NCBI GenBank assembly: GCA_017415165.1
Contig: JAFQIY010000016.1
Coordinates: 1 to 64,000 of the forward strand
Reading direction: 5' to 3'
Source of the DNA: Oscillospiraceae bacterium
GTDB lineage: Bacteria > Bacillota > Clostridia > Oscillospirales > Ruminococcaceae
DNA length: 64,000 bases
The translations under genes and the position numbers were made by a program. Below, piece by piece: positions 35,360 through 59,705 of this stretch; position 1 is the first letter of the stretch; each line of letters begins with the position of its first letter. The notes beneath the pieces were generated by a model. It was not told where the DNA came from, did not search any database, and saw only the letters and a list, made by a program, of their open reading frames with translations.

Positions 35360-35417
35360 GTTAGCCATAGGGTAACCTATGTTTTTTATTGACACCCTCT
35401 CAGAAACAGGCTATAAT
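35360..35417 (+). promoter_or_regulatory. DUF6110/P1B-ATPase promoter with upstream GTTAGC-type site, copy 6
   Basis: TTGACA (35389-35394), a 17-base spacer and TATAAT (35412-35417) make a strong sigma-A promoter. GTTAGCC-ATA-GGGTAAC at 35360-35376 is an imperfect copy of the palindrome, ending 12 bases upstream of -35. An upstream site fits activation better than repression. Confidence 0.7.
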
Positions 35418-35463
35418 TGAAATAACGGCATATGACCGTATCAAATTCAGAGGAGGAAATCTT

Positions 35464-35706
35464 ATGAACAACATCTTTAAAAATGAAAAACTCTGGTGTG
35501 CTGTTGCAGGTGCGGCAGGCGTAATCATCGGCAAGAAGGTACTTTGCTCTCAGAAAACAAGACAGCTTGCAGTAACAGGTCTTGCAAAGGGTATGAAGCT
35601 TACTCACGATGCAAAGACAGCGTTCCAGAATATGAAGGACGAGGCTGAGGACCTTTGCTACGAAGCTAAGGAACAGGCAGGCCTTGCTGAGGAAAGTGCT
35701 GAATAA
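35464..35706 (+). CDS. DUF6110 family small protein
   Basis: Start at 35464 after AGAGGAGG. 80 residues: an N-terminal hydrophobic stretch with Gly zipper character (AVAGAAGVIIGKKVL) and an acidic helical tail (NMKDEAEDLCYEAKEQAG). The family is regularly found directly before P1B-type metal ATPases in Firmicutes; here the stop and the ATPase start share bases (TAATG). It may be a small membrane partner or metal chaperone of the pump. Confidence 0.75.
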   Translation: MNNIFKNEKLWCAVAGAAGVIIGKKVLCSQKTRQLAVTGLAKGMKLTHDAKTAFQNMKDEAEDLCYEAKEQAGLAEESAE

Positions 35707-45183: not shown

Positions 45184-45184
45184 A

Positions 45185-45212
45185 AGCACCTTTGGCTTTC
45201 AAAGGTGCTTAC
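45185..45212. terminator. Terminator shared by AraC gene and Ter operon end
   Basis: AGCACCTTTG and CAAAGGTGCT form a 10-bp stem with a 5-base loop; it overlaps the stop of the last Ter operon gene. Confidence 0.8.
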
Positions 45213-45958
45213 AGACTTAAAACGTATTCAAGAATAAACTCAGCAAAGTTTTCATCTCCGCAGATTTTCACATCTGCGGATTTTATTTTGTCCGCAGTTT
45301 CCCTATCGGGTACAAGTGCAGTATCTGCAAAATCAAGCATAGGATAGTCGATTGAACTGTCCCCTGCGGCAATTACCTTTTCATAGCCGAATGTTTCACA
45401 GTAGCGTTTCAGCGAAATTCCCTTATTTGCAATTGGCGTAAACCAATACATTTTACGTCCTGAAACTTCAAGATTGAGGGTTGTTTCTTTTACAAGCTTT
45501 TCAGCAAGTTCTTCAATTCCGTCACGGTTTTCACGTGCGGCAAAAAGGAACATTCCGTCAACGATTTTTACGGTACGGAACAAGCCGCTTTCCTCATATT
45601 TCCTGCAAAGCTGTTCCATTTCGGGAAGATATTTTTCTGTTTCCGCATCAGCTGTTTCCTGCCACTTTTCATCGGGTACACCGTTTTTCAGCAGGATTGT
45701 TCCGTTGCAGACAAGTGCGGTATTCACTTTGCTCGGAAGCTGTATACGGGAAAACTGTGCTATTGAACGGGTTGTCACGGGAAGAAAATCCACCTTATCG
45801 CTTTCAAGCAATTTGTCAAGCAGTTCAATCGCTTTCAGTGACATAAAGCTGATTTCCCGTCCGTCATAGATTTCGACGTTGGTGTCGTTTTCCTTATAAA
45901 GCCGTGACGAATGGATAAGGGTGTTGTCCATATCGCAGGCAAATAAAATCTTTTTCAT
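45209..45958 (-). CDS. HAD-superfamily phosphatase of the Ter operon
   Basis: 249 residues. Motif I FACDMDNTLI, motif II PVTTRS, and motifs III/IV around ANKGISLKRY and AAGDSSIDYPML are those of Cof-type HAD phosphatases. It ends the Ter operon, starting one base after the StiP gene stop. In Ter loci such a phosphatase is proposed to act in the last step of making a nucleoside-like metabolite. The exact substrate is unknown. Confidence 0.85.
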   Translation of the reverse strand: MKKILFACDMDNTLIHSSRLYKENDTNVEIYDGREISFMSLKAIELLDKLLESDKVDFLPVTTRSIAQFSRIQLPSKVNTALVCNGTILLKNGVPDEKWQETADAETEKYLPEMEQLCRKYEESGLFRTVKIVDGMFLFAARENRDGIEELAEKLVKETTLNLEVSGRKMYWFTPIANKGISLKRYCETFGYEKVIAAGDSSIDYPMLDFADTALVPDRETADKIKSADVKICGDENFAEFILEYVLSL

Positions 45959-45959
45959 A

Positions 45960-47009
45960 TCAGGTATCGGCGAGTTTACGGATTATTCCGCAGGCTTTAT
46001 AGCTTTTCAGCGGGTACTCCGCAACCTCTACGCCTTTCTCCTTTGCTAACTGGTAGATGTGTCCGAGATGTTCGTTGTCGTTAAGGCTGTGCACAAGAAT
46101 TTTCCACGGGACTCTGCGAAGCAGGACTCTTGTTGTCTCGCCAATTCCCGGCTTAACGAGATTGATGTCGGCTACTGAAAACTCCTCGGCAATTTTCTTT
46201 ACTTCTTCCACTCCGCTTGTGGTTGACTCGTGCTCAAAAGCATTGTCACTATCGAAGTCAAAGTGCTCCTCAACAGAATTGATAAAGCTATAGGTCAAAT
46301 CCTTGTCCTTGAAGTTTTCGTAGTACATTGCGCCGTGAAAATCGCTTTCCCCGATTATATCGGCACGGAGAAATGTACGGCTGATAAGTCCCGACACGGT
46401 TGAATTAAGGCAGGAGCTTGCGATGAGAAAATCCTCGGTTGTGCCGTACTTGCCGGAAACGAGTGCAGGGTCGGACAGGACTGCAAGCTTAGGGTCGATT
46501 TCGGGGTAATCAAGCATTGCTTTATCAAGGGTGGTCTGAATTGCGCCCTTGCCTACCCAGCCGTCAACAAACTGAATTTGCTGTGGTTTGTGACGTGCAA
46601 GAATATATTTCATTGCATTATGGTCGATGCCCTTACCACGGATTATCGAGATAGTGTAATGCGGAATATTCACGCTGTACTTGCGGTCAAGGTAATGCTT
46701 TATCAGCACGCCGATTGACGTACCTGCTCTTGCGAGGGAAACAAGGACAGCTTCGCTCCCCTTTTCTGCGTAAATCTTTTCTGCAACGGATGCAACGGCT
46801 TTTGCGGTTACTGCGGAATAAACCTTGACTGCTTCACGGTAGGCGTCCATATATTTTTCAGTCGGCTCATACTCAATGGGAAGCATTTCACAATAATGAG
46901 TGCCGCTCTGTATAAGCTTTTCACGCTCCTCGGTGCTTTGAGGTGTAACCATTCCCGTGATATCCTTCAGAAGAATTGTCACATCCTCAGGCTTATATGA
47001 ACTTCTCAT
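45960..47009 (-). CDS. StiP-family protein of the Ter biosynthetic module
   Basis: 349 residues from ATG 47009 (GGTGAT upstream); ATG 47021 is also in frame but lies too close to its AAGGA site. Blocks VLVSLARAGTSIGVL and QFVDGWVGKGAI resemble phosphoribosyltransferase-type binding loops, and a C-terminal PELOTA-like part ends YKACGIIRKLA. The family is called a cysteine protease (StiP), but in Ter operons it is viewed as part of a metabolite-making set. It overlaps the CitE-like gene. Confidence 0.75.
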   Translation of the reverse strand: MRSSYKPEDVTILLKDITGMVTPQSTEEREKLIQSGTHYCEMLPIEYEPTEKYMDAYREAVKVYSAVTAKAVASVAEKIYAEKGSEAVLVSLARAGTSIGVLIKHYLDRKYSVNIPHYTISIIRGKGIDHNAMKYILARHKPQQIQFVDGWVGKGAIQTTLDKAMLDYPEIDPKLAVLSDPALVSGKYGTTEDFLIASSCLNSTVSGLISRTFLRADIIGESDFHGAMYYENFKDKDLTYSFINSVEEHFDFDSDNAFEHESTTSGVEEVKKIAEEFSVADINLVKPGIGETTRVLLRRVPWKILVHSLNDNEHLGHIYQLAKEKGVEVAEYPLKSYKACGIIRKLADT

Positions 47010-47010
47010 T

Positions 47011-47985
47011 TCAATCACCATTTTCCTTTATGCCGTACACTCTGCCGAGTGTCTGTATGCGCTCTGCCCATCTTGTGTGGCACTTGACCTCATTCATACG
47101 GTTACCGCCGCTGCTTTTTTCCACAGCTGCAACCTCAGGCTGCCAGTCAAGGATTTTCAAAGCGTCCTCATAGTCTGCACGGCTTACTTTAAGGCTGTCA
47201 AAGATAATCGGCAGCTGTGTAGGGTGAATTGCTGTCTTGCCGATAAAGCCGTTAAGCTTGTCAAGTTCAAGTTCACGCTTCAGACCTGTGCACCACTCGT
47301 CATCGGTGTTACTGCCGAAATATTCCCACACGGGACCTGAAACGACGTACTCCGCCGCAAAGACATTGATTACGTCGATAAGTATATCACGGATTACGCC
47401 GATATCGTAAATTGTCTGACTTGCAGTACGGCGCAGACCGTAGATGTTGCTGAAATCATTTCCGCCCACACGGATATTGAGGACGTACTGTTTATAACTG
47501 TCAAGCAATGATTTTATTCCGCAAAGGTTATCGGTACGGACATTCTTATCGGAAATTGCTCTACTTTCAAGGATAGGCATTGCGTAAAGCTTCTGTTTGC
47601 GGTTTTCATTGAAGCGGCTTATTGATTTCAGATATTTGCTGCCGTTGAAGATATCGAATTTCGGGAAGATGTAACCTGTAAGCACCTTTTCGTATCCGCC
47701 GAGCAGGCTGTGCATACGTTCAAGCTGTTCGGGACTGCGGACTCTTACAAACAGGTACGGCAAATCCGTATCTGATGATGAAAGCCTGCGAAGTGTTTCG
47801 CACAGAGTCATTTCCGCCTGTTCCATTGCAGTATCGAGAATTGCGTCCTCAAGGCAGAAAGAAACCGCAGTCAGGCAAGGATACTCCTTATTTATAATTT
47901 TATCTGCCATTGCTGAATTTGTGGCAGGTGTGTAAAGCAGTCCTCCCAGACTATACGGGAGGATATCAGAATTATATTTGTTCAT
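47011..47985 (-). CDS. HpcH/HpaI aldolase or CitE-like lyase of the Ter module
   Basis: Start at 47985 after AGAGGA; an ATG at 48009 overlaps the upstream gene but lacks a good site. About 324 residues. SFCLEDAI, VRVRSPEQLERM and YIFPKFDI fit the TIM-barrel of CitE-type C-C lyases that use Mg2+ and CoA or keto-acid substrates; IGKTAIHPTQ is the usual C-terminal block. It is always paired with phosphoribosyltransferases in Ter operons, where it may add or remove a small carbon unit. Confidence 0.8.
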   Translation of the reverse strand: MNKYNSDILPYSLGGLLYTPATNSAMADKIINKEYPCLTAVSFCLEDAILDTAMEQAEMTLCETLRRLSSSDTDLPYLFVRVRSPEQLERMHSLLGGYEKVLTGYIFPKFDIFNGSKYLKSISRFNENRKQKLYAMPILESRAISDKNVRTDNLCGIKSLLDSYKQYVLNIRVGGNDFSNIYGLRRTASQTIYDIGVIRDILIDVINVFAAEYVVSGPVWEYFGSNTDDEWCTGLKRELELDKLNGFIGKTAIHPTQLPIIFDSLKVSRADYEDALKILDWQPEVAAVEKSSGGNRMNEVKCHTRWAERIQTLGRVYGIKENGD

Positions 47986-47996
47986 TTGAATTCCTC

Positions 47997-49100
47997 TTAA
48001 TTTGTCCATCTGATAATATAAACCCGGCTGTTTCCGCCTGCCGAAAGAGCATTGAGCAAGGTATTGAGTGCATTGTCCGTCATATTTTCTGCATCTGTCA
48101 CAAGCAGTACAGCGTCGTACTTTTCAATGTTATAGATAAAGGTTGTTCGTTCCTCGTCGTAAAGACTTTTCAGGGTGTAACGCGTGTGAAGCGGATAGCC
48201 CTCGTCATTGCTTACTGCGATAGGACTTCTTGTTGTTGCGTGATTTTTTACGTTGTAACCATCATCTGCAAGTCGTGCACCTACATACATTGCGGGGTAC
48301 ATTGTTTCCTCTGTACCGAGTACAAGCAGGTTACTGCAACAATTGTCAAGCTTATCCTTAATCTGCTGATAAAGGTTTTCACAAGCCTGCTTATATGTAT
48401 TTCCGTCGGTGAGACGTCTTGCGTTGACGTGTCCCGCAAGTGTAATTGTTTCTGCATTGATGTCCGATTTATTGGTATCGGCATTTACATAAGTGCCGTT
48501 GATTTCGTATTTATCGGCAACCTCATCATACTCGCTGTTGCGTGTTTTTACAAGATAATGGACGGTTATTCCTCTTTCGGTGTAAACTCTTGCGGAGTCC
48601 TCGTCCATACCGTTGATGAGTGCTGCTACTGAGAATTTTATTTTTGCTGTGTACAGCTTTTCGATAATGTTGATGATATTGAGGATAGTATTTCCTGTTG
48701 TAACCTCGTCCTCAACGAAAACAATTCTGTCGATATCGTTTATTACTGCGTCGACGTCATTTTTTACAAGCTTTTGTTCGGTTGCGTGGCTGTGCTGTTC
48801 GGAAAAGAAAAGATATTCTGCCCCTGTGATATTTTCACGGGTTGTCTGTATGTAGCGTGCGCCTGTTTCTGCGGCAACGGCTGAACCTATTGCAGTTGCG
48901 GTTTCGGCAAAGCCTACAAGCAGGATTTTTTCTTCTGCATAAGCCTGCTTGACCTGCTGTGCAAGTTCATTGAACATTGCCAGTGATTTTCTCGGGTCAA
49001 CGGGAAAATGCTTGCCCTGAAGCTTGTTTACGACAAGATACTTACGTTTTGTATTATTTTCACGCTTTGCTACTGTTACCAAATCTTTTTCCGTATACAT
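47997..49100 (-). CDS. Phosphoribosyltransferase with TRSP domain, Ter module
   Basis: 367 residues, GGAGAAA upstream. The PRPP-binding loop is clear (RIVFVEDEVTTGNTIL, with acidic pair ED and TTGN). The C-terminal part (NLLVLGTEETMYPAMYVG, then TRSPIAVSN) carries the TRSP signature that names the TRSP domain. Together they are expected to attach a ribose-phosphate to a base-like acceptor, in line with the nucleoside-metabolite hypothesis for Ter systems. Confidence 0.85.
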   Translation of the reverse strand: MYTEKDLVTVAKRENNTKRKYLVVNKLQGKHFPVDPRKSLAMFNELAQQVKQAYAEEKILLVGFAETATAIGSAVAAETGARYIQTTRENITGAEYLFFSEQHSHATEQKLVKNDVDAVINDIDRIVFVEDEVTTGNTILNIINIIEKLYTAKIKFSVAALINGMDEDSARVYTERGITVHYLVKTRNSEYDEVADKYEINGTYVNADTNKSDINAETITLAGHVNARRLTDGNTYKQACENLYQQIKDKLDNCCSNLLVLGTEETMYPAMYVGARLADDGYNVKNHATTRSPIAVSNDEGYPLHTRYTLKSLYDEERTTFIYNIEKYDAVLLVTDAENMTDNALNTLLNALSAGGNSRVYIIRWTN

Positions 49101-49177
49101 ATTTTACTTTTTTCTCCAATTCTGAAATATAGGCAAACCACCGCACACAATGTACGGCGGTTTGTTCTGTTATATGA

Positions 49178-51865
49178 TTATGCTTTCTTTGCTTCTGTTT
49201 TTTCGCCTGTTACAGCGTTTGTGATTGCTTTTCTGACAAGGTCAACAGGTATCATTGTTACAGCGAGAAGGATTGCTGCAACCCAGCCTGTTACTCCGAA
49301 AGGTACACAGCTGAACATCTTGCCGATGAATTCAAATGCACCGAGAGGAATAAGTGCCGCATTAACGATAACTGCCTGAATTGCAACGATTGCAAGGAAC
49401 ACGCGGAGGAAATCCTTGTTTTCATTAAGACCCTTGAAGATGCCGAAGCCGTCATCACGGACATTGAAGCCGTTGAAAAGTGCTGCCCAGATAAAGAGCA
49501 CGAAATAACCTGTGAGGTGCTGTTCGTCTGTTTCGAAAAGTCCTCTGAAGAAAGGCACTTTAAGGTAAACAAAGCTGAGCACAACAAGCCACAGACCCAT
49601 AATAACAATTCGGGTCATCATCTTCTTGCTGACGATGCTTTCGTCACGGCGGCGAGGCTTTTCGTCCATATACTTCTTGAGTGCAGGCTCGTTACCGAGC
49701 ATCATTGCTCCGAGACCGTCCATTACGAGGTTAACAAAGAGAAGGTGTGTAACCTTGAGAGGTTCTTCCACACCGAAGAATGGTGCAAAAGCACTTACGA
49801 TTACGGCTGTAACATTGATTACAAGCTGGAAAATACAGAATTTAAGAATGTTATGGTAAATTGTTCTGCCGTACCAGATAGCGTCCTTGATGGACTTGAA
49901 GTTATCATCGAGGACAACGATTTTACCTGCTTCCTTAGCGGCTTCCGTACCGCTGCCCATTGCGAAGCCGACGTCTGCACGCTTGAGTGCGGGAGAGTCG
50001 TTTACGCCGTCGCCTGTCATACCTACAACGAGGTTCATTTCCTGACAAAGACGTACCATTCTTGACTTATCTGTAGGAAGTGCACGAGCAATAACACGGA
50101 GGTTAGGAATAATCTTCTTAACCTCGTCATCGGACATTTCGTTAAGCTGTGCGGAAGAAATTGCAACATCGGAATTTGTTCTGAGGAGACCTGTATCCTT
50201 AGCGATTGCAACAGCTGTTTCAAGGCGGTCACCTGTAATCATTACAACCTGAATTCCTGCCTTCTGTACTTCCTCAATAGCTTCCTTTGCTTCCTGACGT
50301 ACGTCGTCACGGATACCAACAAGACCGATGATTACAACGTCGTCGTTGATTGTGCTTTCGGTCATTGCGCTTTCGGAGTAACCGAATGCAAGTACACGCA
50401 TTGCCTTTGCAGCAAGCTCGTCAATCTTTCGGTTAAGCACTGCACTGTCAATGTCGTGGATTTTTCCGTCGCCGTCCATATACTTCTTAGCCTTTGCAAG
50501 AAGTCTTTCGGGAGCACCCTTGTAGAATGTCTTGCCGACACCGTCAATACGGCTCTGGCTGAACTTGTTTGTGGAGTTGAAGTTCTGGCTTTCGGTAATC
50601 TTGTATTCGTCTCTTGTCTGGAGGAGGTTGAATGTATCCTCACCGATGAACTTCATAAGAGCCTGGTCGGTAGCGTTACCGCCTATAACTCTGTGTTCGG
50701 AGTCAAACATAGACTGGGTATTCTTACCGATTGCAACATCAATAAGTCCCTTTACGTCACCGTGCTTGCTGAGTTCGGGAATATCAATGGAATTGCCGTC
50801 TGCTGTGAAGAAGTCAACAACTTCAAGCATACCCTTTGTGATTGTACCTGTCTTATCGCTGAAAAGGATATTGAGTGAACCTGCTGTTTCGATACCCTCT
50901 GCCTTACGGACGAGAACGTTATGGTCAAGCATCTTGCTTGTGTTCTGCATAAGAACGAGAGAAATCATAAGAGGAAGTCCCTCAGGTACGGCACAGACGA
51001 TAATTACAACTGCAAGAGTTACAGCTTCTACAATCTTTTCGATGATTACATTGACAGGCTGTGCGAAGAATTCGCCTACGCCGCCTGCGTTGCTGATAAA
51101 GAAGATAATGTACAGAACAGCAATTACGATAGCGCCGATATATCCGAATGTGGAAATCTGCTTTGCAAGCTTTGCAAGCTTTACCTTGAGAGGTGAGTCA
51201 GGCTCGTCCTCCTGCATTTCCTCAGCCATTTTACCCATCATTGTTTTCAGACCGACTTTTCTTACATCAAGTACACCCTCGCCGTCAAATACAACCGCAC
51301 CTCTGAAAAGGGAGTGCTTGTCAACAAATGTATCACCTGTGATATCGTCGGGAAGCTCAAAGCTCGGGTCAGCTTCGGTTTTCTTACATTCCTCAGCTTC
51401 ACCGTTAAGTGCGGAGTTGTCAACGTTGAGGTGTCCTGAAACGAGGATACCGTCGGCAGGAATTTTATCGCCTGACTGGAGGATAATCTTATCCCCCACA
51501 ACAACATCGTCAACCTCAATGATTGTTACAAGACCGTTTCTGATTGCCTTACAGGTATCCTTCTTGGTGCTGTCCTTGAGTTCACGATACTTTGTATCGC
51601 TTGCTACACCTGTTTTTGCGGAAACGAATGCAACGATAAGGATAGCAACGATTGTTCCCACAGGCTCGTAGATTTCTGCATAGCCCAGGCAGAACATCAC
51701 AATCATAATTGCCGCAATTACCAGGAGAATTTTAATCATCGGGTCACCGAAAGTTTCCTTGAATTCCTGCCAGAACGTGGTGGGCTCGGAATCAGGAATT
51801 TCATTTGAGCCGTATTTTTCACGGGAAGCTTCGACTTCGGAGTTGTTAAGACCTTTGTAGTTCAT
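49178..51865 (-). CDS. P2-type cation-transporting ATPase (Ca2+/Mn2+ class) in the Ter operon
   Basis: 895 residues with ten helices. CAVPEGLPLMI in M4 is the P2B (plasma-membrane Ca2+-ATPase-like) motif; the phosphorylated Asp is in SDKTGTITKG at about residue 337; TGDGVNDSPALK is the hinge. The substrate may be Ca2+ or Mn2+: several P-type ATPases behind yybP-ykoY riboswitches export Mn2+, and TerD proteins bind Ca2+. It lies between the terD genes and the biosynthetic module, transcribed in the same direction. Confidence 0.88.
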   Translation of the reverse strand: MNYKGLNNSEVEASREKYGSNEIPDSEPTTFWQEFKETFGDPMIKILLVIAAIMIVMFCLGYAEIYEPVGTIVAILIVAFVSAKTGVASDTKYRELKDSTKKDTCKAIRNGLVTIIEVDDVVVGDKIILQSGDKIPADGILVSGHLNVDNSALNGEAEECKKTEADPSFELPDDITGDTFVDKHSLFRGAVVFDGEGVLDVRKVGLKTMMGKMAEEMQEDEPDSPLKVKLAKLAKQISTFGYIGAIVIAVLYIIFFISNAGGVGEFFAQPVNVIIEKIVEAVTLAVVIIVCAVPEGLPLMISLVLMQNTSKMLDHNVLVRKAEGIETAGSLNILFSDKTGTITKGMLEVVDFFTADGNSIDIPELSKHGDVKGLIDVAIGKNTQSMFDSEHRVIGGNATDQALMKFIGEDTFNLLQTRDEYKITESQNFNSTNKFSQSRIDGVGKTFYKGAPERLLAKAKKYMDGDGKIHDIDSAVLNRKIDELAAKAMRVLAFGYSESAMTESTINDDVVIIGLVGIRDDVRQEAKEAIEEVQKAGIQVVMITGDRLETAVAIAKDTGLLRTNSDVAISSAQLNEMSDDEVKKIIPNLRVIARALPTDKSRMVRLCQEMNLVVGMTGDGVNDSPALKRADVGFAMGSGTEAAKEAGKIVVLDDNFKSIKDAIWYGRTIYHNILKFCIFQLVINVTAVIVSAFAPFFGVEEPLKVTHLLFVNLVMDGLGAMMLGNEPALKKYMDEKPRRRDESIVSKKMMTRIVIMGLWLVVLSFVYLKVPFFRGLFETDEQHLTGYFVLFIWAALFNGFNVRDDGFGIFKGLNENKDFLRVFLAIVAIQAVIVNAALIPLGAFEFIGKMFSCVPFGVTGWVAAILLAVTMIPVDLVRKAITNAVTGEKTEAKKA

Positions 51866-51977
51866 AGTTTTAAATACATCCTTTCAAGTTTTGCAGCGTA
51901 CACCCCGAATTACTGCTTTTAATTAATTTGCACATAATAAGGAGAAACCGCAAGCAGTTCCCCCTTATGCTCAATGA
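51866..51977 (-). other. Intercistronic spacer with imperfect hairpin
   Basis: Near 51939-51966 the halves AAGGAGAAACCGC and GCAGTTCCCCCTT pair imperfectly. It has no U-run for the minus strand, so it may modulate the message level of the ATPase and later genes without ending it. Confidence 0.4.
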
Positions 51978-52565
51978 TTACATATAATTTTTAATCATTT
52001 CGCCGAGACCCGGGTCGTTTGTACCCTGACCTACAGCGCTGAACTTCCATTCCCCGTTATGTCTGTATACTTCGCCGAAAATCATTGCTGTCTTGCCTGA
52101 GTAATCCTCTGTAAGGTTGTACTTGTACATTTCTGTACCCTTGTTTGCGTCAACAAGTCTGATGAAAGCGTTCTTGATAAGACCGAAATGCTGCTTTCTT
52201 GCAACAGACTCATAGATATTTACTACGATAACAATTCTGTCGTAGCACTCAGGGAGACTGTTGAGCTCTACCATAATCTGCTCGTCGTCGCCGTCACCTG
52301 CACCTGTGAGGTTATCACCCATATGCATTATAGCACCTGAGCTGTGACGGAGGTTGCCGAAATATACAAGGTCCTTCTTAGCCATAAGCTTGCCGTTCTG
52401 GAGAAGAATTGCGGAAGCGTCACAGTCGATTGGCTGCGGCTTAGGTGCAAAAAGACCTCTGCTCTGCTTTACTTCATCCCAGCCAAGACCGATAAGGAGC
52501 TTGGAAAGACCTGCCTGCTCCTTTGAAAGGCTTACCTTCTGACCCTTCTGAAGACTGATAGACAT
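51978..52565 (-). CDS. TerD-family protein, diverged copy
   Basis: 195 residues, AAAGGATG upstream. It has the family start (LQKGQKVSLSK), LLIGLGWD, and the Ca2+-binding acidic loop [10 protein letters not shown]. It differs from the other two copies by an extra segment after GLGWD (EVKQSRGLFAPKPQPID) and has CDASAILL where they have DLDTAAF-type strands, like the TerE/TerZ-type paralogues. TerD proteins form membrane-associated Ca2+-dependent complexes. Confidence 0.92.
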   Translation of the reverse strand: MSISLQKGQKVSLSKEQAGLSKLLIGLGWDEVKQSRGLFAPKPQPIDCDASAILLQNGKLMAKKDLVYFGNLRHSSGAIMHMGDNLTGAGDGDDEQIMVELNSLPECYDRIVIVVNIYESVARKQHFGLIKNAFIRLVDANKGTEMYKYNLTEDYSGKTAMIFGEVYRHNGEWKFSAVGQGTNDPGLGEMIKNYM

Positions 52566-52595
52566 ATTTAATCATCCTTTCTGTTTTTCGCAGAA

Positions 52596-53177
52596 TTATT
52601 CTGCATCAATTCCGTAATTTGCGCAAAGTGCTGCAAGACCGCCCTGATAGCCGCCGCCGATTGCATTGAACTTCCACTCGCCGTTGTACTTATAGAGTTC
52701 ACCGAATACAACAGCTGTCTCGATGGAGAAATCCTCACCAAGGTCGTAACGGAGAATTTCTTCGCCGTTGTTTTCGTTGTAGATACGGATAAATGCGTTG
52801 TTGACCTGACCGAAATTCTGACGGCGTTCCTCTGCTTCGTAAATTGTTACTGAGAAAGCAATTCTGGAGATATTATCAGGAATTGCAGCAAGGTTAATTC
52901 TTATCTGCTCGTCGTCGCCGTCGCCTGCACCTGTCTTGTTATCGCCGAGGTGCTGAACGGAACCTGATGTGTGGTTGAGGTTGCCAAAGAAGATAAATTC
53001 CTTTTCTGTAGGACATCTTCCGCTGTCATCAAGCATAAATGCTGCTGTGTCAAGGTCGAATGCACCGCCGTTGTCAAACTGGTTGATATCCCAGCCAAGA
53101 CCTACAACTACGTTTGCAAGACCCGGATTTTCCTTTGTCAGACTTACCTTCTGACCTTTGTTGAGAGATACTGGCAT
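52596..53177 (-). CDS. terD: TerD-family protein
   Basis: 193 residues with AAGGAGG upstream. KGQKVSLTK, VVVGLGWDIN, AFDLDTAAFML and [12 protein letters not shown] show an intact TerD fold with the double acidic Ca2+ site. It is about equally like the copy at 53197 and more distant from the copy at 51978. Middle of three tandem copies; spacing to neighbours is 20-30 bases. Confidence 0.94.
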   Translation of the reverse strand: MPVSLNKGQKVSLTKENPGLANVVVGLGWDINQFDNGGAFDLDTAAFMLDDSGRCPTEKEFIFFGNLNHTSGSVQHLGDNKTGAGDGDDEQIRINLAAIPDNISRIAFSVTIYEAEERRQNFGQVNNAFIRIYNENNGEEILRYDLGEDFSIETAVVFGELYKYNGEWKFNAIGGGYQGGLAALCANYGIDAE

Positions 53178-53196
53178 AATATATTCCTCCTTAAAT

Positions 53197-53778
53197 TTAA
53201 GCTACATCAATACCGTAATGTGCGCAGAGTGCTGCAAGACCGCCCTGGAAACCGCTGCCGATTGCGTTGAACTTCCACTCGCCGTTATGACGGTAGATTT
53301 CGCCTACAACGATAGCTGTTTCGATAGAGAAATCTTCACCAAGGTCGTATCTTACAAGCTCTGTATTTGTTGCTTCATCAACAATACGGATAAATGCGTT
53401 GTTGACCTGACCGAAGTTCTGACGTCTTGTATCACAATCGTAAATTGTTACGGTAAAAGCAATCTTTGAAACATTTGCAGGAATTTTGCTCAGGTCAATG
53501 AGAATTTGTTCGTCATCGCCGTCACCCTCACCTGTGAGGTTATCTCCGAGGTGCTTTACGGACTCTGAACCGTGGACAAGGTTGCCATAGAAAACAAATT
53601 CCTTTTCTGTAGGGCACTTGCCGTTTTCGCCGAGCATAAATGCTTCTGCGTCAAGGTCGAAAGCCACGCCTGAGTCGTATACATTTACGTCCCAACCAAG
53701 ACCTACCATTACATTTTTAAGGCTTGGATTTCCCTTTGTGAGGTCAACCTTCTGACCTTTTGCTAAACTGATTGACAT
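53197..53778 (-). CDS. terD: TerD-family protein
   Basis: 193 residues with AGGAGG upstream. [42 protein letters not shown]. Ends [15 protein letters not shown], nearly the same tail as the 52596 copy, indicating a recent tandem duplication. First terD gene to be translated after TelA. Confidence 0.94.
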
Positions 53779-53796
53779 AACTTTTTCCTCCTGTAC

Positions 53797-54882
53797 TCAA
53801 TTGAATTTAATTCCGTCAAACCTCGTCATTGCCCTGACAAGTGCTGTCTGATAGTCAATGCGCTGTTTAGCGGCGTTATTCTGTAACTGTTTGAACTCGT
53901 CGATACTGCCGACGATTGCGCTGTGAAGCTCTGCAAGCTTCGTTTTCTTCCCCTGTGGAGCAGCCTTGAGCTTCTGTTCAAGCTGTTCACGGTGGACGTT
54001 ATCCTTTGCGTTGGCGAGAATTTCCTCCTCCATACGCTTGTTAAGTGCTGCCATTGCTTTATCTTCAAGCGTCTGACGCTTCAATGAAACCGCCTGTGAT
54101 AGTGACTGATTAAAAATCGGAAGCGTTACCAGAAAAGCTGTATTGATTTTATTCATCAGGTTGGAGTTGCTCAATTCCATAGCCTTTATCATTGGCACGG
54201 ACTGGATTGCTATACTTTCTGCAATCCGCAAATCATTGGTACGGTTTTGCAGCAGCATAAGCGCATTTTCAAGGTTTTCCATTTCGGGAAACATCGACTT
54301 ATCGCCTGTTTTAGCGAACTCGTCCTTTAATTCATTAAGGTAATCCTCAATTTCTCGGCAGCCCTGCTCCCCTGCGGCGATATATTTCACAAGCTCACGG
54401 TAATAAGCCGTATTCGCTTCAAACATACGGTTAAGGCTGCGGTTTGAGTTGCCGATTTCCGCTTCATACTGTTTAAGGCGGATAAAGATTTTATCCGTTT
54501 CCTCGCCTATGATACGGTACTTCTCGTAAATTTTGTCAGCCTGTTTTTCGTTGCTGCCAAGAAGCTTGCCGATGAAGCCTTTTGCTTCTGCCTGAATTTC
54601 ATCAATGTTGATTTTTGACATCAGCTTTGCAAGCTCGGTCATTACCTCGTTTGACTCGGAAATCTGAGCCATACTGACATTTTTCAGTACGGCGTCCGAT
54701 GCCTGTGCAACCTGCTCCGCTGCCTGCCTGCCGAAAGAGGTTATCGTGTTCAGGTCAGCGACGTCAAGGGTGCTTACCACAGCGTCAAGCTCGTCCGTAC
54801 CAACAAGGCTTTCGGTTATAAGCTGTCTTTCGGCAGCTATATCATAGGGACGGAATTCTTCAAGTTCGAATTCACTTGCCAT
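53797..54882 (-). CDS. telA: TelA-like toxic-anion resistance protein
   Basis: 361 residues; the ATG overlaps the YceG stop codon (TGATG). It is almost all helical, with long amphipathic stretches (ISKINIDEIQAEAKGFIGKL-type) and family blocks LKQYEAEIGNSNRSLNRMFE and FNQSLSQAVSLKRQTLEDKA (PF05816). TelA is a membrane-associated partner of TerD proteins and is needed in many Ter systems. Slightly shorter than the 380-400-residue norm. Confidence 0.9.
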   Translation of the reverse strand: MASEFELEEFRPYDIAAERQLITESLVGTDELDAVVSTLDVADLNTITSFGRQAAEQVAQASDAVLKNVSMAQISESNEVMTELAKLMSKINIDEIQAEAKGFIGKLLGSNEKQADKIYEKYRIIGEETDKIFIRLKQYEAEIGNSNRSLNRMFEANTAYYRELVKYIAAGEQGCREIEDYLNELKDEFAKTGDKSMFPEMENLENALMLLQNRTNDLRIAESIAIQSVPMIKAMELSNSNLMNKINTAFLVTLPIFNQSLSQAVSLKRQTLEDKAMAALNKRMEEEILANAKDNVHREQLEQKLKAAPQGKKTKLAELHSAIVGSIDEFKQLQNNAAKQRIDYQTALVRAMTRFDGIKFN

Positions 54883-57227
54883 CAGATACCCCTCCCGAAA
54901 ATAAGGTCTTTGAGGATTGAGCGTTTAATGGTACTGAAATCGGGAATTCCAAGGTCGTACATATAATCGCCGACCTGATGCTCACAGAATGGCGTGAATG
55001 TGTAGTTATTCTCAACGCTTCGGTAGCCTGTCGGCACAAAGAATACCACATCAAAGCCTATGAGGTTGAGAAGCGCCATTGAAATTGAGTCCTCAACGGG
55101 GATTGGCGTTTCGGTTGTATTGATATATATGATTTTCGGATTTTTTCTTGTAAAGTCGAAGTCCTGCATTTTACGGAGCAGACGCTGGTCGAAGTTCAGT
55201 GCTTCGGCAACAATTGTATACTCCATACCGTTGCGGAATGTTCCTGCGATAAGTCCGCTGTCGAGGAGCATCTGAATTTTATCCAGAATATGCTCCTGCA
55301 TTTCCTCACGGAGATGTCCGTATTTATAACAGGAGTGGGACTTGATTGCATCACACTGAAGCTGTCCGTTTTTAAGGAAGGACGGAGCATACTTCTTAAT
55401 CGGATTTTCTGCATTCTTATCTATAAAGGAAGGATTTTTCACGATAATGGTGTTGTCAGTCATAAGTGCTTTTATTGAGCCCCAATAGCTGCTCAGGTCT
55501 TTGTTATGGACACCTGACACCTTGGCAAAGATAACGGGGATATCCGCTTCTGCCTTGTCTGTATCGAAGTTGGGACGGAATTTCAGTTCCTGGTCCCAGA
55601 GTATAGCAATTTCGTCATAGGTTGTTTCAAGAACTCTTGCGGCAGCTTTTCGGTACTGGTTTCTGCGGAACATTCCCGAGCCGCTTTGATACATCATCGT
55701 GTCAAGCTGACGTGCGGCATTTGCTGCTGCGGTACTTGTATGCATATTCGCCTTTGAGCAAGGGTACTCCGCAAGTTCTACGGACTCATCATAGTTTATT
55801 TCGCAGATTGTGCCGTCTTCAAGCTTACATTTGCTTTCGAGATTTGGAACAAGAATAAGCACATCAACAGGCAGCTTCACAAGCATTTTCACAAATGCAG
55901 CTTCATTGCCGTTTTTACAGCCGCCAAGGTAGATGAAACAGCTTATTGCATCTGCGGCACGTCCCTTGAAAAGCTGTGACTGATATCGCTTAATCCAGCA
56001 AAGCAGATAAACCGCCTTGCTTGTTTCCTTGTTGATATTCTGACTTTTTGCGTACTCAGCACGCATTGTTTCGCAGAATGCGTTTACCATAGCTTTCTGC
56101 AGCGCAATATCGGAAGGAAAGCTGATATTTGCGGAGAGTGCGGAAATCATTCGCTCTGCGGAGTCATAATTTCCTCGGCGGATTGCTGCAATCTCGTCAT
56201 TTGTAGGAATAGCAATTGTATTGTTGATAATAAGCAGGTTACGCTTATTGTTCTTCACATCCTCCTGAAGCTTATACAGGTCGTTGATGTAGGCATTTTT
56301 TTCTTCTGCACCGTTGATACGATAGAAGCAGTTATAAATTGCACCGCTTTCCGTGCCGCGCTTTGAAGCAGGTGTCTTTATATCGTCAAACGGCTGTTTT
56401 TTTATCCAGCTGTTTGTACAGCGTTTCACTGTCTGCTGTGATGAAGCAGGTACAGCTGTCGGAGCTGGGGAATTGCGCAGTGTAACGTTAAGTGCTGAAT
56501 TGAAATTCTGGGTAAAGCTTGTCGGTCTGCTCGCCTGAGGTGCAGACTGATTTCTCAAATCCTCGCGGATTTTCTTTACAGAGTATCCCTGCGGAAACGC
56601 TGTAAGTCCCTGAATGTTAAGCACGGCAGAAACTGTTGAATTCGGGTCCTGTTTAAGGTACTCCGCATCTCCTGCATACTGGAGAAGAATTACGTCACAG
56701 CCGCACTCGCACAGCACATCAAGGAGCATAAGCTCGTATTTGCTGACGTTTGCTTCGTAAAGAATTTTCGGTACACTGTCTGCACCGAGACTTCCCACAA
56801 TCTGCTGGAATTTGTAATAGAGCCAGCACATAAACTTGATATACGCATTTTTCAGCATATTCTCATTTTTGCCCGAAGCGGCAAGGCTGTCAAGTACCTT
56901 GCATATTGAGCCTGAAACGGAGTCAACCTGATATTCATTCATTCTCGGCAGCCATTTTTTAAGGCTTGCCGCAATGAATTCCTTGTCCCTGCGGAAATCC
57001 ATACCCATCATTTCGTTGTAATAGGCAAGGTTTTTTTCATCGGGATTTGGAATATTACCCTCGATTACTGCACCGCATTTTATTGCTGCCTCGTAGTATT
57101 TTTTCAGAAAGCTGTCAATATCACTGTTAAAGCCGTTTATTCTGTAAAAGTAAACGCATTTTCCATTTCTGTCATTGGCAGGCTTGAAAAAGTCGCTGAG
57201 GTTATTCAGTTTTCCGCGAACAAACAT
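54882..57227 (-). CDS. yceG: YceG-like Ter operon protein
   Basis: 781 residues, AGGTGA upstream. It appears to contain two related parts: each begins with a VYFYRINGF / YNCFYRINGA type strand and includes conserved helices (FMCWLYYKFQ / LLCWIKRYQ) and an LDVLCECGCDVILLQ strand. The YceG family (PF14266) is a putative component of the Ter-linked biosynthetic module; B. subtilis YceG has about 540 residues, so this copy is extended. The N-terminal part of the 57828-59222 protein is homologous to its first domain. Confidence 0.8.
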   Translation of the reverse strand: MFVRGKLNNLSDFFKPANDRNGKCVYFYRINGFNSDIDSFLKKYYEAAIKCGAVIEGNIPNPDEKNLAYYNEMMGMDFRRDKEFIAASLKKWLPRMNEYQVDSVSGSICKVLDSLAASGKNENMLKNAYIKFMCWLYYKFQQIVGSLGADSVPKILYEANVSKYELMLLDVLCECGCDVILLQYAGDAEYLKQDPNSTVSAVLNIQGLTAFPQGYSVKKIREDLRNQSAPQASRPTSFTQNFNSALNVTLRNSPAPTAVPASSQQTVKRCTNSWIKKQPFDDIKTPASKRGTESGAIYNCFYRINGAEEKNAYINDLYKLQEDVKNNKRNLLIINNTIAIPTNDEIAAIRRGNYDSAERMISALSANISFPSDIALQKAMVNAFCETMRAEYAKSQNINKETSKAVYLLCWIKRYQSQLFKGRAADAISCFIYLGGCKNGNEAAFVKMLVKLPVDVLILVPNLESKCKLEDGTICEINYDESVELAEYPCSKANMHTSTAAANAARQLDTMMYQSGSGMFRRNQYRKAAARVLETTYDEIAILWDQELKFRPNFDTDKAEADIPVIFAKVSGVHNKDLSSYWGSIKALMTDNTIIVKNPSFIDKNAENPIKKYAPSFLKNGQLQCDAIKSHSCYKYGHLREEMQEHILDKIQMLLDSGLIAGTFRNGMEYTIVAEALNFDQRLLRKMQDFDFTRKNPKIIYINTTETPIPVEDSISMALLNLIGFDVVFFVPTGYRSVENNYTFTPFCEHQVGDYMYDLGIPDFSTIKRSILKDLIFGRGI

Positions 57228-57238
57228 AACGTCACCTT

Positions 57239-57814
57239 TTATTTCTTTTTATTGAGTGCATATCCTGTCACTGAGCCTACCGCTCCGCCGAGGATATGTG
57301 TGAAATTCGAAACATTATCAGATATGAACAAGCCAAGATAAAGCTGTTCGCCTATATAAATCAAAGCTACAAGAATAAATGTGAGAGGAATTTCACCGTT
57401 TCTGAAGCCTGTTATTGACGAGAGGAGAATAAGTGCGAAAACTACTCCGCTTGCTCCGAGAAGCTGGACGTGCGGAAAAAGAAGCACATTTGCAACACCT
57501 GTCACAACCGCTGTTATAAAAATTATACAGCCGATATTCCACGAGCCGTACTTTTCTTCAAGAAGCGGTCCTACAACAAGTATCAGCATTATGTTGCCCA
57601 TAAAATGCGAAATATCAGCGTGCCCGAAAACGTGCCCTACAAAACGCACATATGTCAGCGGACTGAGCAATGAGGATTTATACACGCTAAACAGCAGGTC
57701 GTTGGTTCTGCCGTTTGTGATATAGCTAAGGATAAGTGCCGCAAGGCATATACAGGTAAAGCCGATTATCACGGGAGAATTGAATGTTATTTTAAGCTTT
57801 GACTTTCCGCTCAT
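57239..57814 (-). CDS. Rhomboid family intramembrane serine protease
   Basis: 191 residues, six helices. HFMGNIML, the catalytic LGASGVVFALIL (GxSG) and HILGGAVG (catalytic His in helix six) are all intact. It lies between the YceG gene (11 bases) and the trypsin-like gene (13 bases). Rhomboids are not a core part of Ter loci; it may cleave a membrane component of the complex or release a signal. Confidence 0.88.
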   Translation of the reverse strand: MSGKSKLKITFNSPVIIGFTCICLAALILSYITNGRTNDLLFSVYKSSLLSPLTYVRFVGHVFGHADISHFMGNIMLILVVGPLLEEKYGSWNIGCIIFITAVVTGVANVLLFPHVQLLGASGVVFALILLSSITGFRNGEIPLTFILVALIYIGEQLYLGLFISDNVSNFTHILGGAVGSVTGYALNKKK

Positions 57815-57827
57815 TTTATCACTCCTG

Positions 57828-59222
57828 TCAGTTTTTCAGTCCCATAAGGAATGTATTTATATATTCGTAGCTGACCGCAAGGTTAAGGTTCTGACCTGCG
57901 TCAAAGCCTGCGGTGCTTATGCCGATTACCTCACCGTTCATATTAAGAATTGCACCGCCCGAACTTCCGTGGGAGATAGGTGCGGTAAACTGTATCATTT
58001 CCACGCTGTCGATAAGTCGGAAGCCTGAGATTATTCCGTCCGAAACGGAATTGAAAAGTCCGAGAGGACTTCCTATCGCAACGACCTTCTGACCTCTCAC
58101 AGGCTTTTTGCCGCTGTAGATTGGAATCGGGTCAAGCCGTCTGTCAATTCTTATTACGGCAAGGTCAATTACAGGATTGTACTTGATTATTTCGTCGGTA
58201 CGGTAAACCTCATCATCGTCCTCAATGCGGACGGAATAGAAGCTGCCGCCTCTTGCGACGTGGTTGTTTGTAAGGATATATCCCTTTTCGGAAATCATAA
58301 TTCCTGAGCCTGTGCCGATAACATCGCCCCTTGAATTATGTACTGCAATCATTACTATCGAGGAAGCAAGACCTGCAAGCTCCTCCATAGATTTTTCTCT
58401 TGTTACTGTGTGCTGTGCGACAGTATTTGCAAAATTTGCTGCCGCAGGGATTTTTTCTGCACGTCTCGGAATTTCCACACGGATATTTTCCGTTCTGTTC
58501 ACAGGCTGCACGGCACTGATTTCCTGCCGCGGTTCGGATTTAGTAAGATTATATTCGGGTACAGGGTCACTGCTGAACATTCCAAGTGAAAATTTTACGG
58601 AAAAGCCGTACTTGTCAAGGTCGGCACCGATATCCTCTCTGCTTTGTAACAGCAGCACGTCAAAGCCGCACAGCGTAAGCATATAGAAAAACAGGTATTC
58701 CTGAGGCTTCGTGACATTGTCAGCGCAAATCTTAACTGTTTCTTTGCCGCCATATCCATTGCTGAATTCCGGCACGGTTTTATCAAACCAGTAAAGAAGC
58801 TTTACTGCAAAATTGTCTTTCATCGACTGGCTTGCATTTTGTTTGGTATTGCTGAACGCATCAAGGGTTTTATGCAGCGCCGAAGCAAGTGCTTCAGCAA
58901 GCGGAATTCCTGCTGTACGCTTGATTTCAGCGGTTTTTCCACTGCTGTTTTTCCATTGGCTAAGACAGGTATTGTAGTAATCTGCATCATCTGCCGACGC
59001 AAGCCTTGGCAATGAAGAAACACGGTTATATGAAATTCTGCCGTCAGAGAGTAAGCTGTCCATTTTTCTGATACCTTCCGCAAATGACGGATTTACGCCG
59101 ATTGCCCGTACAAAATACACATCCTTGCAGCCGTTGTTCAAGCCGCCGCGTACATTGCAGAAGCCCTCAACCGAAGAAATATTCATAACATTATGTCTTA
59201 CAGACCTGACGTAATTACTCAT
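57828..59222 (-). CDS. YceG-like domain fused to a trypsin-like (S1C) serine protease
   Basis: 464 residues. Residues about 1-215 resemble the first domain of the neighbouring YceG protein (KDVYFVRAIGVN; LCGFDVLLLQ). Residues about 285-464 are a trypsin fold with the triad His in LTNNHVARGG, Asp in IDLAVIRID and Ser in HGSSGGAIL. There is no signal peptide, transmembrane helix or PDZ domain, so the protease is cytoplasmic. First gene of the Ter operon; weak ribosome-binding site (GGTGTT). The protease may be triggered by the Ter metabolite or by TerD/TelA complex. Confidence 0.85.
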   Translation of the reverse strand: MSNYVRSVRHNVMNISSVEGFCNVRGGLNNGCKDVYFVRAIGVNPSFAEGIRKMDSLLSDGRISYNRVSSLPRLASADDADYYNTCLSQWKNSSGKTAEIKRTAGIPLAEALASALHKTLDAFSNTKQNASQSMKDNFAVKLLYWFDKTVPEFSNGYGGKETVKICADNVTKPQEYLFFYMLTLCGFDVLLLQSREDIGADLDKYGFSVKFSLGMFSSDPVPEYNLTKSEPRQEISAVQPVNRTENIRVEIPRRAEKIPAAANFANTVAQHTVTREKSMEELAGLASSIVMIAVHNSRGDVIGTGSGIMISEKGYILTNNHVARGGSFYSVRIEDDDEVYRTDEIIKYNPVIDLAVIRIDRRLDPIPIYSGKKPVRGQKVVAIGSPLGLFNSVSDGIISGFRLIDSVEMIQFTAPISHGSSGGAILNMNGEVIGISTAGFDAGQNLNLAVSYEYINTFLMGLKN

Positions 59223-59352
59223 ATAACACCAGACATTTCATTAAATAATTGTAAAAAGCACTAAAATTCACCCATTTTACATACTACAATTATACATCAT
59301 TAGTTTTTCACTGTCAACACATTTCACGTTTTTGCGCACGCGTCCGAAAAAC

Positions 59353-59538
59353 AAAAAAACGAGTGCAGACAAGCTACACTCGGATTCTGATTATCGTTTG
59401 ATTTTATCGTACAGAAACTCAATGTATAGCCATTCAGATATACAATGAGTCTCGCAATTTAAAGCAAGCCAGAACAGGAAAATTCCTGAACGAGTAACTG
59501 TTGACTTGCTGCGTCTTAACGCCTGCTACTCCCTCATA
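59353..59538 (-). ncRNA. yybP-ykoY-type Mn2+ riboswitch controlling the Ter operon
   Basis: On the minus strand the leader reads ATGAGGGAGTAG (59537-59526), then two internal arms, then GCGAGACTCAT (about 59455-59445); ATGAG/CTCAT closes P1 and GGGAGUAG plus GAGAC are the two conserved manganese-binding loops. An intrinsic terminator (CGAGTGTAG/CTGCACTCG and T7, 59382-59353) follows. The same core is found at 35026-35217. Mn2+ should relieve termination and switch on the whole operon down to 45209. Confidence 0.87.
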
Positions 59539-59546
59539 ATGTATGC

Positions 59547-59575
59547 ATTATAGCATATTATTCCGAATTTGTCAA
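59547..59575 (-). promoter_or_regulatory. Promoter of the riboswitch/Ter operon
   Basis: TTGACA (59575-59570) and TATAAT (59552-59547), both perfect, with a 17-base spacer. Transcription would begin about 8 bases before the aptamer. Confidence 0.88.
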
Positions 59576-59632
59576 GAGCAAATTATACAGATTGTTCTAC
59601 AGCAAAATTTGTCCTAAAAACAGCGGATTTGC

Positions 59633-59662
59633 TTGACAATGTGTGCATAAAACTGATATAAT
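59633..59662 (+). promoter_or_regulatory. Promoter of the sodium-dependent transporter gene
   Basis: TTGACA at 59633-59638 and TATAAT at 59657-59662, 18-base spacer, divergent from the riboswitch promoter about 60 bases away. Confidence 0.8.
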
Positions 59663-59705
59663 AAAGTAATTGTGCAAATTATGTCAAAAAGGGGCTTTAA
59701 TATTT

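What the first reader, a model, noticed from the sequence alone, without database searches (positions are those of the whole stretch)
45209..59575. Whole Ter stress operon placed behind a Mn2+ riboswitch
A perfect promoter, a yybP-ykoY core and a T7 terminator precede a 12-gene Ter operon that includes a P2-type ATPase, three TerD, TelA, YceG and the metabolite module. It implies that manganese excess, not tellurite, is the natural signal, and links the Ter metabolite to metal stress.
Basis: partly seen in the sequence, partly recalled or inferred. Interest (0 to 1): 0.85.

Follow-up and report, generated by a model that had tools for sequence, protein, structure and literature searches.

The report
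Manganese riboswitch upstream of Ter operon
A bacterium carries what looks like a manganese-sensing RNA switch in front of its Ter stress genes, but a second promoter kept in a sister species lies past the switch, and no other Ter operon examined has the switch, so manganese looks like an added local input rather than the general Ter signal.

Summary
The leader is real. A consensus promoter (59575-59547), a manganese (yybP-ykoY type) aptamer (59540-59439) and a terminator with a U7 run (59382-59353) precede a 12-gene Ter operon on the minus strand. Rfam's own model misses it, even at E<=10. A covariance model built from 14 relatives, window excluded, finds it at E 4.9e-18. Relatives mostly precede mntP (70 of 117 loci). 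The aligned relatives leave no room for helix P4.

First, a second perfect promoter, P2 (59317-59289), lies between the terminator and the first gene; 1 of 100 aligned riboswitches has this. Second, a congener has the same 12 genes, the same P2 and the same flank, but no riboswitch: the DNA matches on both sides of 59318-59623. Third, the pairing was found nowhere else: 0 hits in 34 family stretches and in 80 database loci, some of them cut by contig ends.

The Ter aptamer also has an enlarged L3 metal-binding loop. Best reading: a lineage-specific, manganese-gated extra promoter (ON switch inferred) upstream of the conserved Ter promoter. "Manganese, not tellurite, is the natural signal" is not supported. 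Response to Mn2+ is untested.

The parts
59547..59575 (-). Promoter P1, TTGACA-17-TATAAT; a start 7 nt after the -10 would fall at the 5' edge of the aptamer (inference)
59439..59540 (-). Manganese (yybP-ykoY type) aptamer: P1.1, L1 GGGAGUAG, P1.2, P2, P3.1; no room for P4
   Evidence: R1 69.2 bits, E 4.9e-18, held out; covariation of relatives
59492..59502 (-). Loop L3: discriminator adenosine equivalent at 59499 kept; GU inserted after it (59498-59497)
59414..59453 (-). H1 hairpin (-15.5 kcal/mol): its 5' arm holds the 3' strand of switch helix P1.1
59372..59431 (-). Proposed antiterminator: 59431-59412 pairs with 59389-59372 (-14.6 kcal/mol as hairpin); excludes both H1 and the terminator
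   Evidence: inference
59353..59382 (-). Intrinsic terminator T2 (9-bp stem, U7), -12.6 kcal/mol
59289..59317 (-). Promoter P2, TTGACA-17-TATAAT, downstream of the terminator; conserved in congener G201 (L267)
59250..59281 (-). Inverted repeat TGTAAAA...TTTTACA in the P2 leader, conserved in L267; possible operator
   Evidence: role is inference
59318..59623 (-). Riboswitch module without counterpart in the congener's syntenic locus
57828..59222 (-). First gene: YceG-like N-terminal part + trypsin-like (HtrA-type) protease domain
57239..57814 (-). Rhomboid protease
54882..57227 (-). YceG (PF14266)
53797..54882 (-). TelA (PF05816)
53197..53778 (-). TerD 1
52596..53177 (-). TerD 2
51978..52565 (-). 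TerD 3
49178..51865 (-). P2-type ATPase, PMCA (IIB, calcium) type: TIGR01517 569 bits over cut-off 507
49134..49164 (-). 14-bp hairpin between ATPase and metabolite module, weak U tail; possible attenuator
   Evidence: role is inference
47997..49100 (-). PRTase_2 + TRSP
47011..48009 (-). C-C bond lyase (PF15617)
45960..47021 (-). StiP + PELOTA
45209..45958 (-). HAD hydrolase
45184..45210 (-). Terminator-like hairpin at the operon's end

Best explanation
A manganese-riboswitch expression cassette (promoter P1, three-way-junction yybP-ykoY type aptamer, terminator T2) sits upstream of an intact Ter operon that keeps its own conserved promoter P2. Without Mn2+, transcripts from P1 should fold H1 and stop at T2, and Ter expression comes from P2. 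With excess Mn2+ the aptamer should hold helix P1.1, H1 is broken, the antiterminator can form, and P1 transcripts run through P2 into the Ter genes. Manganese would thus add to Ter expression in this lineage; it is not the sole or general Ter signal. Shown: aptamer homology, promoter and terminator sequences, P2 and its conservation in one congener, absence of the module there. Inferred: Mn2+ binding, ON direction, antitermination, one long transcript, size of the effect.
For: Held-out covariance hit E 4.9e-18. Structure of 14 relatives with 11 of 24 pairs changed on both sides, 0 of 500 shuffles as high. The family's usual targets are metal exporters: of 117 loci, 70 MntP-like, 20 P-type ATPases, 4 CaCA-like by seed match. 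L1 is kept, and the discriminator adenosine is kept in 100 of 100 aligned aptamers, the window's included. Alternative pairings H1, antiterminator and T2 are of similar strength; 2 of 1000 shuffles of the second strand pair as well. P2 is conserved and the module is absent in the congener. 1 of 100 riboswitches, this one, has a promoter of 11/12 or better within 230 nt downstream.
Against: No expression or binding data. Rfam RF00080 gives no hit to this element. L3 is about 2-3 nt longer than in most of the 99 others (7-9 nt), so metal binding could be lost or changed. With the aptamer helices forced, the lowest-energy fold still keeps T2, so antitermination is not predicted at equilibrium without the metal. 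In several relatives T2 is more stable than the antiterminator. The ON direction rests on the L. lactis work; one review passage calls these riboswitches OFF switches (PMC11477304). The pairing is seen in one genome. P2 may swamp any effect of P1.
Confidence: 0.66

Rival explanations
1. Orphaned leader: the riboswitch once served a metal exporter whose gene was lost here, leaving P1, the aptamer and T2 upstream of Ter by accident; T2 stops most transcripts and the switch has little effect on Ter.
For: The locus is variable: in the congener a 643-aa sensor/GGDEF gene lies at the same point. L3 is abnormal, as expected of decay. P2 makes the switch dispensable. The own mntP has no R1 match and none is visible in the 511 nt before it that I read.
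Against: P1 is still 12/12; P1.1, L1, P1.2, P2 helix, P3.1 and T2 are intact; the 35 nt between T2 and the P2 promoter leave no room for an exporter gene.
Confidence: 0.22
2. One reading: the whole Ter operon answers to manganese through the riboswitch, and manganese is the natural Ter signal.
For: Riboswitch homology; genes of a Klebsiella ter operon are induced by Mn(II) among other metals.
Against: P2 bypass, absence in the congener, absence in the other Ter loci scanned.
Confidence: 0.06
3. The leader is a stand-alone small RNA like Rfam SSRC10, not a switch.
For: SSRC10 is the best Rfam match to the leader, 23.7 bits, E 0.033, under its cut-off of 56.
Against: SSRC10 also matches, below cut-off, R1-type leaders in front of genes that look like OAD_beta (4 of 11 loci), and homologues precede metal exporters: SSRC10 is more likely a relative of this aptamer.
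Confidence: 0.04

Closest known systems
yybP-ykoY manganese riboswitch (Rfam RF00080)
   Same: L1 GGGAGUAG; L3 with the Mn2+-sensing adenosine; P1.1 switch helix whose 3' strand feeds the alternative fold; metal exporters as usual targets of the homologues; terminator-type platform
   Different: No P4 (junction of three helices in our model); no Rfam match; in the Ter copy L3 is enlarged; target is a Ter operon with its own promoter
Riboswitch-controlled TerC genes
   Same: Link of a 'tellurite' gene name to the same riboswitch class (PMC8779313, passages seen)
   Different: TerC is a membrane metal-transport protein, a different family from TerD/TelA/YceG (recalled); none of the 12 genes matched a TerC family
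Ter/TelA stress operons of Firmicutes (Anantharaman et al. 2012, recalled and seen only as a citation)
   Same: Gene content. Of the 80 nearest YceG loci, 79 have TelA, 78 a TerD, 68 a P-type ATPase (53 of them at 60% identity or more), 46 StiP
   Different: R1 found no manganese riboswitch in those 80 loci
Mn2+ riboswitch in front of P-type ATPases (L. lactis yoaB, C. difficile CD2503; PMC11477304, passages)
   Same: A P2-type ATPase lies downstream
   Different: Here the ATPase is the eighth gene; of 20 riboswitch-linked ATPases, 17 match the L039 type better than the Ter type

Membership tests
yybP-ykoY manganese riboswitch | Match to Rfam RF00080 over its cut-off | tested here: not met
   No match; 7 of 15 homologues 17.7-27.5 bits against 45; one homologue in front of a GDT1 gene 35.0 bits
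yybP-ykoY manganese riboswitch | Conserved P1.1, L1, P1.2, P2, P3.1 with covariation | tested here: met
yybP-ykoY manganese riboswitch | Mn2+-sensing adenosine in L3, in the L3 setting of the solved structures | tested here: inconclusive
   Adenosine kept in 100 of 100. The L3 letters of the X. oryzae structure (PMC6754395, passages) recur exactly in 8 of 16 rows of A2 and 34 of 100 of A5; the Ter copy inserts GU after the adenosine
yybP-ykoY manganese riboswitch | Fourth helix P4 | tested here: not met
   6 nt between P3.1 and P1.2 in all 16 rows of A2
yybP-ykoY manganese riboswitch | Binds Mn2+ and turns genes on | not testable with these tools
   needs bench work
yybP-ykoY manganese riboswitch | Family controls metal-export genes | tested here: met
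   94 of 117 homologous loci with MntP, P-type ATPase or CaCA by seed match, three of the four CaCA matches weak (48-55 bits); GDT1, Na_Ca_ex, Mntp confirmed by Pfam in one example each
Ter/TelA operon | TerD, TelA and YceG together | tested here: met
Ter/TelA operon | Confers tellurite or other stress resistance | not testable with these tools
   needs bench work
SSRC10 sRNA (RF02617) | Match over cut-off | tested here: not met
   23.7 bits against 56

The most novel reading that the evidence does not exclude
A compact, P4-less manganese-riboswitch cassette was recruited upstream of a complete Ter operon, giving it a metal-gated second promoter; the enlarged L3 marks a change of metal affinity or selectivity suited to Ter. 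Manganese (or a related metal) overload would then raise Ter proteins, the calcium-type ATPase and the metabolite enzymes together in this lineage.
Probability: 0.2. Interest if true: 0.72.

Novelty: new variant of a known kind. Interest (0 to 1): 0.47.

Why it matters
What switches Ter operons on outside laboratory tellurite is, as far as I recall, an open question. Here the switch, its terminator and a riboswitch-free sister locus with the same genes and the same second promoter give a natural comparison: upstream of the operon the two loci differ chiefly by the riboswitch module, so the share of manganese in Ter control can be measured directly. The own genome and several homologous leaders are missed by Rfam's model or fall below its cut-off, so manganese regulons in these bacteria are likely under-annotated.

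Tried and rejected
Rfam alone: rejected as the test, because its 177-position model also scores clear homologues in front of mntP below cut-off. A search for the same pairing elsewhere: R1 on 34 stretches from the 28 family genomes with YceG, the own genome's other YceG locus among them (778 bases); on 80 genome-contig loci (736 bases); unfiltered on L124 and L267 (no match below E 0.18); RF00080 in 35 of the 80 genomes. None lies at a Ter operon. Several stretches are cut by contig ends: 66 of the 80 loci hold 2500 nt or more upstream of YceG, 9 under 1000, so a switch beyond the cut would be missed. The one RF00080 match (below cut-off) is an mntP leader elsewhere in that genome and scores 87.5 bits with R1. 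So R1 also works outside the window's family.

In 396 family genomes, 27 have YceG at E<=1e-60 and 150 have R1 at E<=1e-8. Comparing the printed places by eye, only the window's contig has both. The R1 list was cut by the tool near 4e-11; the one YceG genome whose R1 place was not printed, G278, has it on another contig. With weaker R1 matches, G180 has both on one contig, but 91 kb apart (E 3.1e-4).

Rows dropped: of the 15 aptamer loci, L043 was left out of A3 as a near copy of L042; loci that matched only the promoter part were not used. The 117 loci are 30 best matches and 80 more plus 7 congener matches; the eight weakest matches were not fetched. A5 took 98 of these loci and the window; left out were L075, L160 and L161 (near copies) and L332-L347 (limit of sources). 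In one search, 21 of 117 loci had no seed match in the right place; three of them (L086, L088, L162) show MntP or ATPase, whole or cut, and were missed by my position filter or by a contig end. One search looked at the other 18 and printed a gene for 15; 10 look like the OAD beta subunit, one of them (L344) confirmed by Pfam. L333's ABC match is 1.8 kb away and not counted as a target.

A tree of aptamers puts the Ter copy nearer to leaders of other genera than to congeners' mntP leaders (best identity 0.71 against at most 0.62), but supports on its path are 0.0-0.78, so horizontal origin is only a lead. The statement that the ATPase exports Mn2+ was not adopted: curated models favour the calcium PMCA type, and sequence cannot settle the metal.
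Full report
WHAT IS THERE. The minus strand from 59575 carries a 12/12 promoter (P1, 59575-59547), a structured leader, and a stem-loop with a U7 run (T2, 59382-59353) before 12 genes that end at 45209. Pfam names the genes: YceG-like plus Trypsin_2, rhomboid, YceG, TelA, three TerD, a P2-type ATPase, PRTase_2/TRSP, C-C bond lyase, StiP/PELOTA and a HAD hydrolase.

IS THE LEADER A MANGANESE RIBOSWITCH? Rfam gives no RF00080 match in the window, in the leader at E<=10 or in the whole genome at E<=10 (the same search rings in 9 of 14 control genomes, over the cut-off in 2). A blastn search of 197 family genomes, however, finds the aptamer part of the leader in other species. I used 15 such loci. 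By their printed translations the genes after them are MntP in most, an exchanger in L034 and a P-type ATPase in L039 (names by resemblance there, supported by seed matches and by Pfam on single examples). Seven of the 15 have RF00080 matches below the cut-off at the right place. From 14 of them, without the window, I built a 24-pair model. 97.0% of cells pair against 91.4% in shuffles, 11 pairs change on both sides, 0 of 500 shuffles reach any of the five measures, and slid structures pair in 24.5-43.5% of cells. This held-out model finds the leader at 69.2 bits, E 4.9e-18, and a second copy in the window at 35219-35122 (-), E 2.6e-15. These are the only two in the genome at E<=0.01.

ANATOMY. 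All 16 aligned sequences keep GGGAGTAG and TCAACA. In the L. lactis and X. oryzae structures the Mn2+ ion is held by an invariant adenosine in L3 (PMC6754395, passages). That adenosine is kept in 100 of 100 aligned aptamers. The X. oryzae loop letters recur exactly in 8 of 16 rows of A2 and 34 of 100 of A5. The Ter copy reads AACA-GU-UACUC: the adenosine (59499) is kept but two bases follow it that the others lack. L3 has 8 nt in 89 of 100, 9 in 7, 7 in 3; the window's Ter copy is the exception (the aligner scores 6 and moves the rest into the next loop, by hand it is 10-11). The second window copy is AACATACT. Between P3.1 and P1.2 there are only 6 nt in the 16 rows of A2, so the P4 helix of the described four-way junction (PMC11087558, introduction read) has no room. 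That probably explains the low Rfam scores.

EXPRESSION PLATFORM. The 3' strand of P1.1 is also in the 5' arm of hairpin H1 (-15.5 kcal/mol). H1's 3' arm can instead pair with the 5' arm of T2 and the bases before it (antiterminator, -14.6; T2 alone -12.6). As a duplex the antiterminator scores -16.8, with 2 of 1000 shuffles as low. Comparable H1, antiterminator and T2 elements appear in several mntP leaders, though in several of these T2 is the strongest. This fits an ON switch: Mn2+ holds P1.1, frees H1's 3' arm, and blocks T2. Against it: forcing the aptamer helices costs 6.8 kcal/mol and the best fold still contains T2. The ON direction is taken from the L. lactis studies (PMC11087558 introduction; PMC9190785 passages); a review passage says OFF (PMC11477304). 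The step is inferred, not shown.

THE BYPASS. A second perfect promoter, P2, lies at 59317-59289, after T2; 66 nt separate its -10 box from the start codon. The intergenic region has three 12/12 promoters (one for the divergent SNF transporter) against a shuffle mean of 0.0015. Of 100 riboswitches aligned, only this one has a promoter of 11/12 or better within 230 nt downstream; 77 have one of 10/12 or better just upstream.

THE SISTER LOCUS. In the genus, TelA at high identity occurs in 2 of 21 genomes, the window's and G201 (89%); the others have 36-39% matches or none. G201 has all 12 genes in order, 74-98% identical. DNA homology covers window 57803-59317 (76%) and 59624-60799 (89%). What lies between, 59318-59623, is the riboswitch module, and it has no counterpart; G201 has a 643-aa sugar-sensor/GGDEF gene there. 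R1 without filters finds nothing convincing in that locus (best E 1.3), nor anything at E<=0.01 in the G201 genome. P2, its 17-nt spacer and a TGTAAAA...TTTTACA repeat after it are conserved. P2 thus looks like the older Ter promoter, and the riboswitch is a gain in this lineage or a loss in G201; two genomes cannot say which.

HOW WIDESPREAD. YceG occurs in 28 of 197 family genomes. R1 finds nothing in 34 stretches from these, nor in the 80 nearest YceG loci of a named collection, although 78 of those have a TerD and 68 a P-type ATPase, and one of those genomes has this riboswitch type at mntP. Some stretches are cut short. In 396 genomes, 27 with strong YceG and 150 with R1, only the window has both close together (my comparison of the printed lists; G180 has a weak R1 match 91 kb from YceG). 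In the genus, 8 of 21 genomes have R1; translations at the seven other loci look like MntP (one confirmed). The own mntP directly follows a gene that looks like a flavin reductase (recalled resemblance), and no riboswitch is visible in the 511 nt read before it.

TARGETS OF THE FAMILY. Of 117 loci: 70 MntP, 20 P-type ATPase, 4 CaCA, 2 ABC (one too far to count), 21 unassigned by seeds. Among the unassigned, translations show about 10 oxaloacetate decarboxylase beta-like genes, two TetR-like, an exchanger and a GDT1 (one of each confirmed).

LITERATURE. I searched the open library for riboswitch, yybP-ykoY, TerD, TelA, tellurite and manganese terms and for variants of the class. I saw capped listings with titles and abstract starts, and passages of a few papers: the known TerC link and induction of Klebsiella ter genes by Te(IV), Zn(II) and Mn(II). 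None of the listed titles and abstract starts mentions a manganese riboswitch before a TerD/TelA operon. Dambach et al. 2015, one likely place, is not held; Anantharaman et al. 2012, another, I did not try to fetch. Novelty of the pairing is therefore provisional.

VERDICT. Observation confirmed and made firmer; interpretation cut back. The most likely reading is a manganese-gated extra promoter for Ter in one lineage, with a fair chance that it is a relic.

Noticed in passing
window 35219-35122 (-), genes 34990-34292 and 34248-31996: A second manganese riboswitch with normal L3 precedes an ABC ATPase and an FtsX permease, an unusual target. Another genus (G181, L292) has the same pairing with the ATPase 96% identical and a near-identical aptamer (tree distance 0.03), which suggests recent transfer.
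   Followed up: partly
L312, L325, L328, L329, L335, L336, L339, L340, L344, L345: Lower-scoring relatives of this aptamer precede genes that look like the oxaloacetate decarboxylase beta subunit (one, L344, confirmed by Pfam). Possibly a variant with another ligand.
   Followed up: partly
L312, L328, L329, L340 and window 59537-59409: Rfam SSRC10 (Streptococcus sRNA 10) matches these leaders below its cut-off; SSRC10 may itself be a member of the riboswitch family.
   Followed up: no
window 35389-37796 (+): Divergent from the second riboswitch: a small protein and a heavy-metal P1B-type ATPase.
   Followed up: no
L267 15526-17457 (-): In the congener a LacI-type sensor domain fused to GGDEF lies where the riboswitch module sits in the window.
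   Followed up: partly
window 59281-59250: Inverted repeat TGTAAAA/TTTTACA just after P2, conserved in the congener: a candidate operator of the native Ter regulator.
   Followed up: no
G000:C18:4682-5137 (L244): The genome's mntP shows no riboswitch, unlike mntP of several congeners; it directly follows a gene that looks like a flavin reductase.
   Followed up: partly
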